From: Chthonomonadales bacterium
GTDB taxonomy: Bacteria > Armatimonadota > Chthonomonadetes > Chthonomonadales > CAJBBX01
Direction: 5' to 3'
Length of the DNA stretch: 64,000 bases
Assembly (NCBI GenBank): GCA_020849275.1
Contig: JADLGO010000026.1
Location: 1 to 64,000, forward strand
The notes under the pieces were generated by a model that saw only the letters and a program-made list of their open reading frames with translations, made no database searches and was not told where the DNA came from. Below, in pieces: positions 12,563-18,055 of this stretch. The first letter of the stretch is position 1, and each line of letters opens with the position of its first letter. The position numbers were made by a program, and so were the translations under genes.

Positions 12563-13699
12563 ATGCTACGATTGCGAGGTAACCCGCTCGGCGGCGGCCT
12601 GGCGTGCGGCGCTGCGGTGCTCGTGCGCGATCCCCGCGTGCCGGTCGACGTGCCGCCCTCCCTGGTGCCGGCGCTCGCGCGCGCGGCGCGCGGGGAGCCG
12701 ATGGAGCCGATGGACGTGGTGGTGGTGGGCGCCACGCTCGCCGGCGTCGAGGCTGCGGCCGCGCCGTGGGGGCATGTCGTCGCGGTCGTGGTCGAGGGCG
12801 ACGAATCAGGCGCACCGCCGCCCGGGGTCGCGGCGGTGGGCGGCGTCGAGGCGGCGCGCGCCAGCGTCCGCGACCAGGAGATCGTGCTGGTCGACGGCGA
12901 CCGTGGGATGGTTCTCGTGGACCCGACCGCAGTGGACCTCGCGGCCTACCAGGCCGACCGCGAGCGGATCGCGCCGCGCCGGCGCCTCTACCTTGACTTT
13001 GAGCACCTGCCCGCGCGGACGCTCGACGGGCGCGAGTGCCACGTGCTGGCCGCCGCGCGCTCGCTGTCCGGGGTGGACGCCGCCGTGGCGGCCGGCGCCG
13101 ACGGGGTCTACGTGCCGGAGGGCGGCGTGGCCGCGGCGGGCGCCGCGGAGGCGGCGTGGCTGGAGACCGCCCGCGCCGCCGCCGGCAAGCCGCTGATCGT
13201 CGCGGGCGACCACCGTACGCTCCCGCTGCGGTCCGTCCTGCGGGCCGCCGCGCTCGCGGAGCTTACGCTCGCCGTGCCCGCGCGCGGCGTGGAGGGGCCG
13301 CCGTGGAGCGACGTCGAGGGGGCCCTGGCCGACGCGCGCGACCGGCTCCTGGATGCCGACGCGGCCTGGGCCGACCCGCTGCTCGCCGCGGTGGAGCTGC
13401 CGGGCGGCGACGCGCTGGCCGCGCTGCCGGCCGCGGCGCTGTCGCGCGTGGTGGCGGAGCTCGACGCCGACGACCCCGGCGCCGCCGACCGCCTGGCGGA
13501 TCTCGTCGCGGCGGCGACTCCGCTGCTGCTGCCCGTGCTGGCCGCGCTCGCCGCGCCGGACGAGGAGCGCGTGGCCGCGGCGCTGGGCGCGGGGGCGGCC
13601 GGGTTCGTGGTGGCGCCCGACCGGGTGCAAGAGACGAAGGCGACGCTGCGCGGACTGGACGCGGCGTTCTGCCGCCTGGCCGCCGCGCCGCGGCTCTGA
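12563..13699 (+). CDS. Degenerate PTS Enzyme I-like (PEP-utilising) protein lacking the active-site His
   Basis: A 378-residue protein whose segments line up with PTS Enzyme I. The start LRGNPLGGGLACGAAVL resembles the Enzyme I N-terminus. VVAVVVEGD, then IVLVDGDRGMVLVDPT (residues 107-122) and AAYQADRERIAPRRR resemble the swivelling phosphohistidine domain and linker. DGRECHVLAAARSLSGVDAAVAAGADGVYVPEGG (about 155-188) resembles the start of the PEP-binding barrel. The catalytic GGxTSHxAI stretch is missing between residues 80 and 95, and the HPr-binding helical domain is also absent. If this alignment is right it cannot transfer phosphate. Composition is extreme Ala/Val/GC. GGGGGAA precedes the ATG. 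Its 3' half is antisense to the DUF2079 reading frame. Family assignment is my pattern match, not a search result. Confidence 0.6.
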   Translation: MLRLRGNPLGGGLACGAAVLVRDPRVPVDVPPSLVPALARAARGEPMEPMDVVVVGATLAGVEAAAAPWGHVVAVVVEGDESGAPPPGVAAVGGVEAARASVRDQEIVLVDGDRGMVLVDPTAVDLAAYQADRERIAPRRRLYLDFEHLPARTLDGRECHVLAAARSLSGVDAAVAAGADGVYVPEGGVAAAGAAEAAWLETARAAAGKPLIVAGDHRTLPLRSVLRAAALAELTLAVPARGVEGPPWSDVEGALADARDRLLDADAAWADPLLAAVELPGGDALAALPAAALSRVVAELDADDPGAADRLADLVAAATPLLLPVLAALAAPDEERVAAALGAGAAGFVVAPDRVQETKATLRGLDAAFCRLAAAPRL

Positions 13700-15123
13700 C
13701 GGCCGGCCGGAGGCCGGCACACGCGCCCGCCGGCGCGAGCCCCGCGGCGCAGCAGCACGACCCCCTCGCCGCTCCACACCACGCCGTACTCCGGGCTGCG
13801 CAGCAGCAGGCCCGACAGGTAGCCGAACGTCTCAGCGTCCAGCGGCCACATCCGCGCCAGCGTGGTGGCCGGTCCGCCGTCCGTGCCGCCGACCCCGGTG
13901 CAGAGCAGGACGTAGGCCACGTCTGAGCGGCGGATGCGCTCACGCAGCGCCGGCTCCGCATCCGGCTCGAGGTCCTTGCCATCCTGCTGGCGCAGCGCCC
14001 GCGCGCTGGTGCCCCAGCACGCCTGCTGGAAGGGGTTCGGGAACAGGTACACGCGCCGCCGGTGGGCCAGGTGCGGCACGAACGCCGTCTGCGTGCTGAC
14101 GGAGGCTCCGTCGGGGATGAGCGACAGCGCGCGCCGCACGGCGCGTACCTGCTGCCGGGACGGCCCCACGAAGCTCGGCTCCGCGCCGGTGTCCAGCAAG
14201 GGGCCACGACTCACCCCGACGCCCGTTCCCCACACCACGACGCCGGCGAGCGCCGCATCCGTCCATCGCGCGCGTCGCTGCAGGAACCGGGCGGAGAGGA
14301 GCAGCCGCCGGGCCTGGCGGAACCCCTCGATGCCGGCCAGGAACACGAACGGGATCGCGGGAGCGCTGTGGTGCGCGTAGATGCTGGCCACGGCGGGCCG
14401 GCTGGCGAGGATGTGGAGCAGGACGATCGGCACCGCCATCAGCAGGTACTCCGGCGCAAGCGCGCCGAGCACGCCGCCCGAGACGATCAGGTCCTCCAGG
14501 TACCGCAGGATGTGCGGCTGGCGCACGGCGTCGGCGACCGACCCGGGATGGCTGGCCAGGTAGGCGGCTATGGACGCCGGCGTGTCGCCGTAGGCGTCGT
14601 AGAGGCTCACATAGGCCGCGGGATGGCCTCCGCTGCACGCCCGCAACACCACGCAGCTCATGGCGAGGCCCGCCGCGGCGAGGGCGGCGGTCGCGGCGCC
14701 GGCCCGCCAGCCCATCCGGAACGCGGCATAGACGGCGAGCGCCAGAACGGTCAGGCCGGTCGTCTCACGGCAGAGGAGCGCCAGCACGATGGTCACGTAG
14801 AACAGCGCCTGGCGCCGGCTCTCTACGGCCCAGAGCGCCATCAGCAGCAGCGGCGCAACGAGAGTGTCCGGGTGGAAGCCGTACAGGCTCATCCAGTGCA
14901 GGGCGGGATAGAGGAGGTACCCCAGGGCGAACAACAGCGCGAGCCCGGGGCTGCGCAGGCGCGCCCGGGCGAGGCCGTAGACGGGTGCGGCGCCGGCAGC
15001 CAGGCCCAGCGCCTGGACGAGCAGGAGGACCTTCGGGCTGTCCCAGAGCCAGTAGAGCGGGGCGAGGAGGTAGAGGATGAGGCTGAAGTGGTCACCGAAG
15101 GCGTGGAGCCCGCGCGTCGTCAC
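13108..15123 (-). CDS. DUF2079 membrane protein, N-terminally truncated and C-terminally extended (likely pseudogene)
   Basis: The conserved part (about 15123 to 13700) is a DUF2079 multi-helix membrane protein: RGLHAFGDHFSLILYLLAPL, YGFHPDTLVAPLLLMALW and EYLLMAVPIVLLHILASRP are typical. Members normally begin with about 80 further residues, including a first membrane helix; here the frame starts at a GTG at 15123 with no ribosome site. At the other end the homologous sequence finishes near 13705, yet the frame stays open for about 190 Ser/Ala-rich residues antisense to the Enzyme I-like gene. Both ends therefore look damaged. The 5' break coincides with the junction to the island at 15123-18183. 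The function of DUF2079 proteins is unknown; they resemble membrane glycosyltransferases. Confidence 0.65.
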   Translation of the reverse strand: MTTRGLHAFGDHFSLILYLLAPLYWLWDSPKVLLLVQALGLAAGAAPVYGLARARLRSPGLALLFALGYLLYPALHWMSLYGFHPDTLVAPLLLMALWAVESRRQALFYVTIVLALLCRETTGLTVLALAVYAAFRMGWRAGAATAALAAAGLAMSCVVLRACSGGHPAAYVSLYDAYGDTPASIAAYLASHPGSVADAVRQPHILRYLEDLIVSGGVLGALAPEYLLMAVPIVLLHILASRPAVASIYAHHSAPAIPFVFLAGIEGFRQARRLLLSARFLQRRARWTDAALAGVVVWGTGVGVSRGPLLDTGAEPSFVGPSRQQVRAVRRALSLIPDGASVSTQTAFVPHLAHRRRVYLFPNPFQQACWGTSARALRQQDGKDLEPDAEPALRERIRRSDVAYVLLCTGVGGTDGGPATTLARMWPLDAETFGYLSGLLLRSPEYGVVWSGEGVVLLRRGARAGGRVCRPPAGRQSRGAAARRQNAASSPRSVAFVSCTRSGATTNPAAPAPSAAATRSSSGAASAASTGSSSGVAAATRSARRSAAPGSSASSSATTRDSAAAGSAASASPPGSSTAASSGSAQAASASRSRSRASARAPSTSLHGGPSTPRAGTASVSSASAAARRTDRSGSVRWSPATISGLPAAARAVSSHAASAAPAAATPPSGT

Positions 15124-15475
15124 AAATGGTGATCACGACCGGCTTCCGATCCGGCTCCTCCATCTGCCGGAGGACGGCCGCGGTCCGGTCCTTCACGAAG
15201 GTGGCCGGCGCTCTCAGCCTGGTGCTCGAGGGCACCCGATCCCAGAATGTCTGGAACCTGGCCTCGATCTCGCGCCGAGTGAGCCGCTTGAGGGTGTTGT
15301 GATGCTCGCACCGGTAGACGGCCGTGAAGTCCGGCCCGCGCCCGGCAAGGAGGTCTCCGAGCGACGCGTCGACGCCCGCCCGTGCGTGCCCCGGCACCGC
15401 CGAGCTGGCGGACGCCAGAACGAGGATCAGTGTGCCCCGGATCCGGCGAGCGGCTCGTCCGAACGTTAGGGTCAT
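15092..15475 (-). CDS. Small secreted protein, C-terminus truncated at a chimeric junction
   Basis: A 127-residue protein with an N-terminal signal peptide (residues 10-33, ending HARA). The mature part contains VYRCEHHNTLKRLTRREIE and a hydrophobic strand VVITIC, with cysteines at 56 and 118. The last nine codons (DDARAPRLR) are read from what is, in another frame, the DUF2079 gene, so the native C-terminus appears lost. No family is recognised. It follows the 12-cysteine protein gene on the same strand and is probably part of the same cassette. Confidence 0.55.
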   Translation of the reverse strand: MTLTFGRAARRIRGTLILVLASASSAVPGHARAGVDASLGDLLAGRGPDFTAVYRCEHHNTLKRLTRREIEARFQTFWDRVPSSTRLRAPATFVKDRTAAVLRQMEEPDRKPVVITICDDARAPRLR

Positions 15476-15597
15476 TCCAGTCTCTGCCCTTTCTGGCGAG
15501 GCGAGGGTGGTGCGGCCCGCTCCCGCCTCTGGGCGGCTGGCCCGGCGCCGTGCGTATGCGTGGCCGCCAAGCGCGGCTCGCGCACCAGTAGCACTCG

Positions 15598-16071
15598 TCA
15601 CTGGCGGCTGCAGCCCTCCGGGCCGTTCCAGCCGTAGATCGAGGAGTTTGCCTGCTCGTGGTCGATCTGGCAGGTGCCTGCAGGCACCCGGCCAACTTGG
15701 TCCATGTGGCAGTCGCTCGTGCTGAAGAAGTGCTGAGTCCAGTCGGCATGATCCTCGCGACACTGGAGCTCCTGGTCTAGCGGAGTCAGGCACCCACCAA
15801 GAATGGCCAGGTAATCCTGAGAACCGTTCTCGCAGTGGTAGTCACTCATGCACCAGCAGTGTTGGCCGCCGCCGGGTTCCGGGAGGCAGTAGTATATGTC
15901 ACATTGACAGGCTCCGCCTCCATAGTGCTTGATCGGGATCCTGCCCGTGGGGCAGAGGGCAGCCCACACCGCGGTCACGCTCGCCAGCAGCAGCACCGTC
16001 AAGAGCGTGGCTCCCAGGGAGGCGCGCTGCCCTGCCGGCGACAGCGATCTCGTCGACGCCAGTCCGTCCAT
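15598..16071 (-). CDS. Secreted 12-cysteine protein
   Basis: A 157-residue protein. Residues 17-38 form a signal peptide (cleavage expected after AVWA). The mature chain holds cysteines at 40, 55, 57, 62, 72, 74, 80, 94, 104, 121, 134 and 154, an even number compatible with six disulfides. CQC and CWC pairs and several Trp, Tyr and His residues are present. I start it at the ATG at 16071 because AGGAGG is 8 bases upstream; the ATG at 16077 is too close. Genes for a DsbA-like oxidoreductase and a MauE-like protein lie upstream on the same strand, so this is the likely folding client. Small 12-cysteine subunits are known in methylamine dehydrogenase (MauA), whose maturation needs MauE and MauD. 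I see no sequence identity with MauA and propose only an analogy. Confidence 0.65.
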   Translation of the reverse strand: MDGLASTRSLSPAGQRASLGATLLTVLLLASVTAVWAALCPTGRIPIKHYGGGACQCDIYYCLPEPGGGQHCWCMSDYHCENGSQDYLAILGGCLTPLDQELQCREDHADWTQHFFSTSDCHMDQVGRVPAGTCQIDHEQANSSIYGWNGPEGCSRQ

Positions 16072-16163
16072 CTGCATTCCCTCCTTCCAGTCATACAGAT
16101 CATGCTGGCGGGGAGCACACGCCCTGCCAGCTAGCGGTGCGCCCGCTGCCGTCGTGGCAGCGC

Positions 16164-16847
16164 CTACTCAACTAGCCTGTCGACGTCCTCAAGGTCTCGC
16201 AGGCGAAGCACGCGGCCATCGGGACGACACAGCACGAACGTCGGGGTGCCGTCTACCCCGAGTCGTCGCGCGAGCGCGCCGTCGGCCCTCAGTTGCCGCT
16301 GGGCCTTGATGGTGTTCGGCACAACGGCGGCTCGCCTCAGGACATCGGCCACGGCGCCACGGCGGCTCAGGTCGGTGCCGAACACGGCGTCGTGGACGGG
16401 CCAGAACCTCTCAGCCGCGCGCGCCGATTCGGCCGCGAGCGCGGCCTCCCGCGCATGGCGGTGGATCGCCACCAACGGGTTCTGGCGGAAATCCAGCCGC
16501 AGCCGGCCCTGGTGGTTGGCAAGCAGCGCGCGGAGCGGTTCCTGCGAGCGGCGGCACGGTGAGCACTCGTAGTCGCCGAACTCCACGAGCGTGTAAGGGG
16601 CACTCGGGCGACCTCGGAAGCCGTGCCGACCAGCGAGCAGTGCCGCCGCCGGCACCGGTAGCACCATCCGGTGTACGGCGACACCCCACGCTTGCCGCTC
16701 CCGCCAGATGTCCCGTGCCATCAGACCCGCCATCAATGCGGCGATGCCAGCACACGCGATGAAGGGGAGCATGTCGCGCACCTGGCGTGCCCCGGGGGGC
16801 GGCGCGGTGGCCGCCGCGGAGCGGCGTTCAACGGGCGTTGTCTCCAT
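16164..16847 (-). CDS. Membrane-anchored DsbA-like thioredoxin
   Basis: A 227-residue protein: one N-terminal transmembrane helix (residues 27-45) and a DsbA/thioredoxin_4-type domain facing the periplasm. The redox motif is CSPC at residues 95-98, within LVEFGDYECSPCRRSQ. The helical insert (HAREAALAAESARAAERFWPVHDAVF) and the cis-proline loop GVDGTPTFVL are intact. It should form or shuffle disulfides in exported proteins. The start is the ATG at 16847; longer in-frame starts overlap the MauE-like gene. It lies between the MauE-like gene and the 12-cysteine protein gene, all on the minus strand. Confidence 0.85.
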   Translation of the reverse strand: METTPVERRSAAATAPPPGARQVRDMLPFIACAGIAALMAGLMARDIWRERQAWGVAVHRMVLPVPAAALLAGRHGFRGRPSAPYTLVEFGDYECSPCRRSQEPLRALLANHQGRLRLDFRQNPLVAIHRHAREAALAAESARAAERFWPVHDAVFGTDLSRRGAVADVLRRAAVVPNTIKAQRQLRADGALARRLGVDGTPTFVLCRPDGRVLRLRDLEDVDRLVE

Positions 16848-16909
16848 GTGCCCCGCTGTACTGCGTTCGTGACGCACCGGTCCGAACCGGCGGTCGGCAT
16901 CGTCGGGCC

Positions 16910-17416
16910 TTACCGATCGTGATGCTCGTGCACCGTCGCACCACTGCCACACTGGATCTCACGACAAAGGAGCACAAGGGCGATGCCAGCCAGGGACAGG
17001 TCGAACAGGAGCATCAACGGCGCACTCATGGTGAACAGCGCTGAGAAGCACCCGCACGGAGCATCGATACCCATGAGCAGGCGCCAGTAGTTGTAGCCAG
17101 CGAACGCTGCAAAGAGGGCCACGCTGCCCCGCAAGCCCTACAGACGGGCTGGCCGGTACAGGAGGGCGACGGGGAGGCTCCACTCCAAGGCGAGCGCCAC
17201 GACGGCCACCCATGGTGCCAGAGCTGCGGGTACCAGCCCCGACTCCTCAAGGACGCGCTCGAACTCGCGCGGTACCAGCGTCTTGGCGTAGGCTGCTGTC
17301 CAGAGCCCGGCGCCAACCACGCAGAAGCCGGCCAGCGCCAGGAAGTCGGCGCCGCGCGAGCGCCGGACACTACGGCCCGGAGCCGTCCGCTCACGATCTC
17401 GCACAATGCCGCTCAT
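16910..17416 (-). pseudogene. MauE/DoxX-like redox membrane protein interrupted by an in-frame TAG
   Basis: From the ATG at 17416 (GAGGTGA about ten bases upstream) the frame encodes a membrane protein. It stops at TAG (17140-17138, codon 93) and continues in the same frame to 16910 with further membrane helices. Taken together, about 168 residues contain four hydrophobic segments and the PCGCF motif (in IDAPCGCFSAL) typical of MauE-type proteins, which pass electrons to periplasmic thioredoxins. The two parts are useless alone, so this is either a nonsense mutation, a sequencing error or stop-codon readthrough. The downstream half could be re-initiated at a TTG at 17134 but would lack the first helices. 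Confidence 0.7.
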
Positions 17417-17545
17417 CCATCCGCACTCACCTCTCCCTGGCCTCACCTCAGGGAGCCTCGCACCCACTGCCGCGGTTCGCCCAGCGGGACCGCGTCACTG
17501 TAACAGCCGCTCACGCCAGGCGCAAGCCCCGCTGCCGAGCTCGCA

Positions 17546-18055
17546 TTAACGCAGCGCTAATGCAGCGCGCAGCAGCCAGAAGGCACATTCCCGCGACTCT
17601 CGCAGCCGCCTTCGCTCGCGCCGGACCCATCCCTCGTCTCGCCCGGGCAGCAGATCGCCGCCGTAGGTCTCCACCGCCGTGAGGAGATGTCTGGTGCGCT
17701 CCCGTGGCTCGGAGCATGTGTCAGCCCGGCGCAGCGCCTGGTCGAAGATAGCTACGTCCGACGCGACACACCGCGAGTCGAGCGCAACCGCTCGCGCGTC
17801 CGCCTCAAGCGCGTTCTCTTCGGCGCCCGCCTCACCCAGCAGCGTGCGGAGCTGGCACAGCGCCACGCGGAGGTCGTTCTGGCTGTCGCTGGCAGTTGGC
17901 CACAGCGGACGGGCCAGGGCTACGCGCCCCCAGCGCTTGCCGGGCTCGATGGCGAGCCGCGCCAGCAGGAGGGCCGGCCCGCGCCGGGTCACACGAACGG
18001 CGTGGCGCGGTGCCCCTGCCACGGTCACGTCGCCAAGCAGGCGGATGTGCACCAT
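17546..18055 (-). CDS. SARP/AfsR-type transcriptional activator with shortened BTAD domain
   Basis: A 169-residue protein. Residues 1-90 form an OmpR-like winged helix as found in SARP regulators (VHIRLLGDVTVAG, then DLRVALCQLRTLLG at the recognition helix). Residues about 100-169 match the beginning of the bacterial transcriptional activator domain (VAIFDQALRRA, ETYGGDLLPG). BTAD domains usually run to about 150 residues, so the C-terminus is roughly half length. Start is the ATG at 18055, with GGGAG upstream. It is first in the minus-strand cassette and probably controls it. Heptamer repeats with 11-bp period lie about 140 bases upstream. Confidence 0.75.
   Translation of the reverse strand: MVHIRLLGDVTVAGAPRHAVRVTRRGPALLLARLAIEPGKRWGRVALARPLWPTASDSQNDLRVALCQLRTLLGEAGAEENALEADARAVALDSRCVASDVAIFDQALRRADTCSEPRERTRHLLTAVETYGGDLLPGRDEGWVRRERRRLRESRECAFWLLRAALALR

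What the first reader, a model, noticed from the sequence alone, without database searches (positions are those of the whole stretch)
15092..18055. Candidate dedicated oxidative-folding cassette: SARP regulator, MauE-like, DsbA-like and a secreted 12-cysteine protein
Five same-strand genes form a coherent set: a SARP/BTAD activator, a MauE-like redox membrane protein (PCGCF motif), a membrane-anchored DsbA-like thioredoxin (CSPC), an exported protein with exactly 12 mature cysteines (residues 40-154), and a further small secreted protein. MauE plus a thioredoxin-like partner matures the six-disulfide MauA subunit of methylamine dehydrogenase. Here the client has no visible MauA similarity, so this could be an undescribed secreted Cys-rich product with its own disulfide machinery and regulator. 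The island also has visibly lower GC and less biased codon use than its flanks, suggesting transfer.
Basis: partly seen in the sequence, partly recalled or inferred. Interest (0 to 1): 0.72.

Follow-up and report, generated by a model that had tools for sequence, protein, structure and literature searches.

The report
Broken copy of disulfide-rich secretion cassette
This stretch is a decayed copy of a gene set that recurs across the bacterial phylum Armatimonadota and appears to export a small cysteine-rich protein together with its own disulfide-forming helpers; the protein family is undescribed in the libraries searched, but this particular copy has broken genes.

Summary
Beside cassette-type MauE genes of Armatimonadota lies a small Sec-exported Cys-rich protein in 23 of 35 loci, against 0 of 14 DUF1573/rhodanese-type MauE loci (p 1.6e-5). 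It is followed by a 310-480-aa secreted protein with a C-terminal membrane anchor, and often by a C39 peptidase and/or a DUF2079 or O-antigen-ligase membrane protein. The Cys-rich proteins share an 8-Cys core (class A: 20 sequences; class B, with DsbA, includes the window) and match no Pfam, NCBIfam or PDB family above threshold. The window's 12 Cys are the core plus two extra pairs. Cassettes with an exported C39 peptidase also carry a second, double-glycine-type leader in the precursor (6/7 versus 0/26).

Three corrections. The window MauE is cut by an in-frame TAG. The fifth gene is a truncated stub of the anchored partner, run into a DUF2079 gene missing its first ~78 residues. The regulator is not a conserved part. 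The genome holds three cassettes; two are damaged.

Likely mechanism: Sec export, disulfide formation by MauE with or without DsbA, and leader removal by C39 in some subtypes. The biological role is unknown, perhaps a secreted bacteriocin-like or signalling product. Function is inferred, not shown.

The parts
17546..18055 (-). Short regulator-like protein (169 aa): N-terminal winged helix of SARP/OmpR type, BTAD-like by eye; not a conserved part of the cassette
   Evidence: Trans_reg_C 18.7 bits (cut-off 26.2), no BTAD hit; other cassettes have a LuxR-type HTH (L152/L153), an ECF sigma gene (L027) or neither
16910..17467 (-). mauE (PCGCF redox motif), interrupted by in-frame TAG at 17138-17140; probably a pseudogene
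   Evidence: PF07291 E 4.6e-17 spans the stop; tree places it with class-B MauE-DsbA fusions (94/81)
16164..16847 (-). dsbA-like membrane-anchored thioredoxin (CSPC); ORF open from 16952
   Evidence: Thioredoxin_4 E 2.3e-8, DSBA 5.7e-7; 45% identical to the DsbA-like gene of G017
15598..16077 (-). Class-B Cys-rich exported protein: 8 core Cys plus 4 in an insertion
   Evidence: no Pfam/NCBIfam/PDB match; homologues by class-B profile in 8 genomes including this one
15092..15475 (-). 5' stub of the ~390-aa C-terminally anchored partner (S protein), ending in the DUF2079 region
   Evidence: 30% over 80 aa, E 7e-8 to L007:2871-4046
15120..15150 (.). Deletion junction between the S-gene stub and the DUF2079 remnant
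   Evidence: frame with S homology passes into ...PFVTTRGLHAFGDHFS (DUF2079) in another frame
13108..15132 (-). DUF2079 membrane protein remnant, first ~78 residues missing; belongs to the ancestral cassette order
   Evidence: (PF09852 E 4.6e-55, profile from position 38); DUF2079 also follows the S protein, directly or after a C39 gene, in L025, L031, L032, L069, L034, L026

Best explanation
The window holds a decaying class-B copy of a recurrent Armatimonadota cassette. In intact copies a small protein is exported by Sec and folded into a disulfide-rich form (8-Cys core) by a dedicated membrane redox protein, MauE, helped in class B by a DsbA-like thioredoxin beside or fused to it. The next gene makes a secreted, C-terminally anchored partner (weakly LolA-like), presumably a chaperone, carrier or receptor for the product. 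Some copies add an exported C39 peptidase that removes a second, double-glycine-type leader, and a polytopic membrane protein (DUF2079 or O-antigen-ligase type) that may add sugar. Shown: gene content, order, conserved Cys, leader/peptidase co-occurrence, damage in this copy. Inferred: disulfides, MauE/DsbA acting on this client, processing, glycosylation and biological role. This copy is probably inactive: MauE has a nonsense codon, and the partner and DUF2079 are truncated and run together.
For: Cys-rich exported ORF just downstream of cassette-type MauE in 23/35 loci versus 0/14 for DUF1573/rhodanese-type MauE (p 1.6e-5). Cassette MauE split from the other type by a 100/99 branch, and the window MauE groups with class-B MauE-DsbA fusions. 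Eight Cys columns in 19-20 of 20 class-A and 6-8 of 8 class-B sequences; class-B extras come in pairs (window +4, G017 +2). Profile hits confirm neighbourhoods. Anchored partner beside nearly every Cys-rich gene. C39 peptidase (PF03412, E 1e-7 to 4e-13; 3e-6 in G288) coincides with an L[ST]xxEM...G or MTxEEMxxxxGG leader, 6/7 versus 0/26, p 6e-6. MauE-DsbA fusion. Three cassettes in this genome: C61 complete from MauE on, C26 (window) damaged, C2 with an IS3-type remnant.
Against: Five class-A loci with E<=1e-5 have no MauE nearby (neighbourhoods of G082:C49, G009:C85, G183 and G186 read; G184 inferred from its near-identity to G183), nor does class-B G017 (DsbA only). MauE of G006/G007 lacks the CxC motif (PRPANGFG) although their precursors keep the Cys. 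Some precursors have odd Cys counts. AlphaFold models of the Cys-rich protein and the partner were unusable (pLDDT 41 and 39). The window damage could in part be an assembly error. The 35 and 14 MauE loci were chosen by PF07291 score, not at random.
Confidence: 0.68

Rival explanations
1. The cassette builds a structural or adhesive cell-envelope component: the Cys-rich protein is a stable surface protein held by the anchored partner, decorated by the DUF2079/O-antigen-ligase enzyme and displayed with DUF1559 pseudopilins.
For: Anchored partner is the most constant neighbour. Wzy_C and DUF2079/PMT_2 hits in the next gene. Pseudopilin genes lie next to several cassettes, against about one per 70 kb in this genome (69 hits).
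Against: Several different Cys-rich versions per genome, with decay and IS insertions, look more like a fast-evolving accessory trait. GG-type leader plus C39 points to a processed, released peptide in at least one subtype.
Confidence: 0.25
2. The cassette makes a secreted bacteriocin-like or signalling peptide: exported, oxidised, cleaved by C39 and released, with the anchored partner as immunity protein or receptor.
For: C39 peptidase family and double-glycine-type leader co-occur (6/7 vs 0/26). Multiple diverged copies per genome (G075, G086, G092, G134, G000). The only C39 hit in this genome is in a cassette. mauE occurs in decRiPPter candidate RiPP families of Streptomyces (PMC7794033).
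Against: No dedicated ABC exporter or C39-fused transporter was seen near the cassettes read. Most cassettes, including the window's class B, lack C39. No activity data.
Confidence: 0.35
3. The Cys-rich proteins bind metal (bufferin-like) rather than form disulfides; MauE/DoxX keeps them in the right redox state.
For: Bufferin gene clusters also pair Sec-exported Cys-rich precursors (Buf2 with 6/12 Cys) with DoxX proteins and sigma factors (PMC12452194). One class-A member hits NF050166 BufA2 at E 1.4e-4.
Against: The MNIO enzyme that defines bufferins is absent from 19 of 20 cassette genomes, and the one found is on another contig. DsbA partners favour oxidation.
Confidence: 0.08
4. The damage in the window is an assembly or base-calling artefact, and the locus is intact in the organism.
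For: The genome is in 73 contigs and reads are not available; a single-base TAG and one junction could be errors.
Against: Two independent kinds of damage in one locus; a second cassette of the same genome (C2) is also damaged, by an IS3-type remnant; completeness 99.9%.
Confidence: 0.15

Closest known systems
Methylamine utilisation system (MauE, MauD, MauA)
   Same: MauE membrane redox protein with a thioredoxin-like partner beside a Cys-rich exported client.
   Different: Client is not MauA: no PF02975 match in the window protein or above cut-off in 291 Armatimonadota genomes. Partner is DsbA-like, and the shared client core has 8 Cys rather than MauA's 12 (the MauA number is from general knowledge).
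Bufferins (Buf1/Buf2) with MNIO, DUF2063 and DoxX (PMC12452194)
   Same: Sec-exported Cys-rich small precursor with a DoxX/MauE-like membrane protein, sometimes a sigma factor, several copies per genome.
   Different: No MNIO near the cassettes; here DsbA, an anchored partner, C39 and DUF2079/Wzy genes instead.
decRiPPter candidate RiPP families with mauE in Streptomyces (PMC7794033)
   Same: mauE in a putative small-peptide cluster outside any mau operon; one family also has mauD.
   Different: Different phylum; homology of precursors not tested here. Armatimonadota precursors carry Sec-type signals and an anchored partner.
Double-glycine-leader bacteriocins with Peptidase_C39 (PF03412)
   Same: LSxxEL...GG-type leader with a C39-family peptidase in the same cluster (subset of cassettes).
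   Different: The C39 protein is a separate, apparently exported protein, not the N-terminal domain of an ABC transporter, and the leader lies behind a Sec-type signal. Absent from the window's class B.
DUF1573-rhodanese-MauE clusters of Armatimonadota
   Same: Same MauE family (PF07291), same phylum.
   Different: Separated from cassette MauE by a 100/99 branch; never followed by a Cys-rich exported ORF (0/14).

Membership tests
MauE (PF07291) | Profile match over the membrane domain with the CxC motif | tested here: met
   E 4.6e-17, PCGCF; but the match is interrupted by an in-frame TAG
DsbA / Thioredoxin_4 | Thioredoxin-fold profile match with CxxC | tested here: met
   (2.3e-8, 5.7e-7), CSPC
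Methylamine dehydrogenase light chain MauA (PF02975) | Profile match | tested here: not met
Methylamine dehydrogenase light chain MauA (PF02975) | TTQ cofactor Trp pair and neighbouring mauB/mauG | not tested
   no family match, so not pursued; mauB/mauG were not searched for
SARP/BTAD regulator | BTAD domain match above cut-off | tested here: not met
   only Trans_reg_C below cut-off; BTAD-like motifs seen by eye only
Bufferin cluster | MNIO enzyme (PF05114) beside the precursor | tested here: not met
   none in 19 of 20 cassette genomes including G000; one hit in G121 on another contig
Bufferin cluster | BufA precursor profile | tested here: inconclusive
   one of 18 class-A members at E 1.4e-4; none in class B
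Double-glycine-leader/C39 peptide cluster | C39 peptidase and GG-type leader in this locus | tested here: not met
   no C39 in the window cassette, no leader motif; met in L069, L077, L149, L031, L032, L192
Armatimonadota MauE-Cys-rich-anchored-partner cassette (defined here) | MauE of the cassette clade, Cys-rich exported protein with 8-Cys core, anchored partner, membrane DUF2079/Wzy gene in this order | tested here: met
   in the window with DsbA between MauE and the Cys-rich gene, MauE nonsense, partner and DUF2079 truncated

The most novel reading that the evidence does not exclude
A new class of secreted disulfide-rich peptide in which a Sec signal is followed by a second, double-glycine-type leader. 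Folding by MauE/DsbA and leader cleavage by a free C39 peptidase both take place outside the cytoplasm, unlike known C39 bacteriocins, where the peptidase is part of the ABC exporter. The window is a degenerate relative of this class.
Probability: 0.35. Interest if true: 0.75.

Novelty: new variant of a known kind. Interest (0 to 1): 0.58.

Why it matters
It defines an undescribed family of exported 8-Cys proteins with a recognisable maturation set in a poorly studied phylum, and makes concrete predictions (disulfides, MauE/DsbA dependence, C39 cleavage at a stated motif). It gives MauE a recurring role outside methylamine dehydrogenase, and offers a natural test of which redox partner serves which client, because MauE-only, MauE plus DsbA, MauE-DsbA fusion, DsbA-only and MauE-less versions all exist.

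Tried and rejected
Structure prediction of the window Cys-rich protein (2-row alignment) and of the G017 partner gave pLDDT 41 and 39; fold searches were therefore not run. Family searches of the Cys-rich sets in Pfam, NCBIfam and PDB gave only chance-level or signal-region hits. Degenerate-pattern scans of genome contigs with single proteins found nothing or only G017 itself. The viral-contig scan could not be run on the alignment; tblastn of one class-B protein against plasmids gave no match. The weak hit in G003 (L003) was spurious. MauA was rejected. Bufferin membership was rejected on MNIO. Alternative reading of TAG was rejected because TAG ends many ordinary ORFs here. Paper searches for an Armatimonadota MauE/Cys-rich system found none. 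Horizontal transfer was not tested by tree comparison; only the GC deficit was measured.

Full report
What is in the window. On the minus strand from 18055 to 15092 lie a 169-aa regulator-like ORF, a MauE gene, a DsbA-like gene, a Cys-rich exported protein and a short exported ORF. Pfam confirms MauE (E 4.6e-17) and DsbA/Thioredoxin_4 (2.3e-8); the Cys-rich and short proteins hit nothing, and the regulator has only a sub-threshold winged-helix hit. MauE is not continuous: a TAG codon interrupts it inside the profile match, and a separate six-frame search reports the same stop. TAG ends 16 of 37 long ORFs of the window, so recoding is unlikely.

Where it comes from. A homologue of the Cys-rich protein lies in the same order, in a record titled uncultured Chthonomonas (27% identity, E 3e-17 pairwise), so the genome belongs to the Chthonomonas order of Armatimonadota. 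In that record (G017, L004) the order is DsbA, Cys-rich, a 392-aa protein, O-antigen ligase. The window's short fifth ORF matches the start of the 392-aa protein (E 7e-8). The next window gene, DUF2079, begins at residue 78/79 of its intact paralogues on contigs C61 and C2 of the same genome. The junction is near 15120-15150. The simplest reading is one deletion that joined the partner gene to DUF2079.

The cassette elsewhere. Reading MauE loci of the order and phylum showed a recurring order: MauE, small Cys-rich exported protein, secreted protein with C-terminal membrane anchor and basic tail, then often a C39 peptidase and/or a DUF2079 or O-antigen-ligase gene. A fixed rule (65-210 aa, hydrophobic N-terminus, at least 7 mature Cys, no other membrane segment) found one such ORF just downstream of MauE in 23 of 35 loci and in 0 of 14 loci of the other MauE type (p 1.6e-5); elsewhere in the fetched loci such ORFs are rare. 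Three more cassette loci were missed by the rule (L028 and L032 because of their starts, L084 because of gene order). The two MauE types are separated by a 100/99 branch.

Two classes of client. Class A (20 sequences) has eight Cys columns present in 19-20 of 20. Class B (8 sequences, including the window) has eight columns in 6-8 of 8, and in most of its loci MauE is next to or fused with DsbA, as Pfam shows for L081. The window's four extra Cys sit in one insertion; G017 has two in the same insertion, which fits added disulfides. The window MauE groups with the class-B loci L081, L087 and L092 (94/81), so client class and redox partner agree. Neither class matches Pfam, NCBIfam or PDB above threshold.

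How constant are the partners. A class-A profile over 291 genomes gives 27 loci with E<=1e-5: 21 beside MauE, one at a contig edge, five without MauE nearby. Those without MauE still have the anchored partner. The partner profile itself also finds loci without a Cys-rich gene, such as G003:C74. The partner has no family of its own; one member touches LolA_like at E 0.006, below that family's cut-off.

Leader and peptidase. Cassettes with an exported Peptidase_C39 (PF03412) carry, between the Sec-type signal and the first core Cys, a motif of the form L[ST]xxEMxxxxG; none of 26 precursors without C39 does (5/6 versus 0/26). A further locus found later by the partner profile, G288, has MTTEEMRSVRGG and a C39-DUF1573 fusion, giving 6/7 versus 0/26, p 6e-6. 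Some of these loci are close relatives (L031/L032), so the effective number is smaller. In this genome the only C39 hit is in the C2 cassette.

Composition. The cassette is lower in GC than its flanks in 25 of 27 loci (mean -4 points, p 5e-6), in genomes of very different GC. This fits transfer but also weak codon selection; I did not test trees.

Decay. Of three cassettes in this genome, C61 is complete from MauE to DUF2079. C2 has MauE cut by an IS3-type remnant, no Cys-rich gene and a remnant of the partner. The window copy has the TAG and the deletion. G016 shows the same kind of IS damage. Repeated loss of parts fits an accessory trait.

Mechanism and limits. The anatomy supports export, oxidation by MauE with or without DsbA, and, in a subset, cleavage by C39. 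Nothing here measures disulfides, processing, glycosylation or activity. G006/G007 MauE lacks CxC, so MauE need not be redox-active everywhere.

Literature. In the papers held I found no account of this cassette. Nearest are mauE-bearing candidate RiPP families of Streptomyces (PMC7794033) and bufferins with DoxX (PMC12452194).

Noticed in passing
L027 2133-3449 (-) and the ORF just upstream on the same strand: A radical SAM protein (PF04055 E 4e-12) stands next to a second, unrelated 12-Cys precursor-like ORF (MDMDNEARGTG...CRGGGY) in the same region as a class-A cassette: possible radical-SAM peptide cluster.
   Followed up: partly
G000:C2, L026 6900-8700; L034 6666-7440: IS3-type transposase remnants have replaced the MauE end and Cys-rich gene in two cassettes while partner, C39 and DUF2079 remain or partly remain.
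   Followed up: partly
L031 7044-7604 (-), L032 6703-7230 (+): Cassette MauE proteins in which the CxC motif is replaced (PRPANGFG) although the neighbouring precursor keeps its Cys.
   Followed up: no
L032 5345-5890; L031 8434-8637: Tandem-repeat coding-like arrays (for example MSRIHRMVREGMHSPVNSVYRC repeated) close to the cassette; nature unknown.
   Followed up: no
whole genome G000: 69 DUF1559 (PF07596) pseudopilin-like hits in one 4.8-Mb genome; one is read through with the DUF2079 gene of the C61 cassette.
   Followed up: no
window 12563-13699 (+) versus 13108-15132 (-): Long ORFs on opposite strands overlap by about 590 bases; beyond residue ~490 the DUF2079 ORF shows no DUF2079 similarity, so its original 3' end may also be lost.
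   Followed up: partly
L152 and L153 (G186, G183): MauE-less version in another family: LuxR-type HTH, Cys-rich protein, anchored partner, two large further ORFs.
   Followed up: partly
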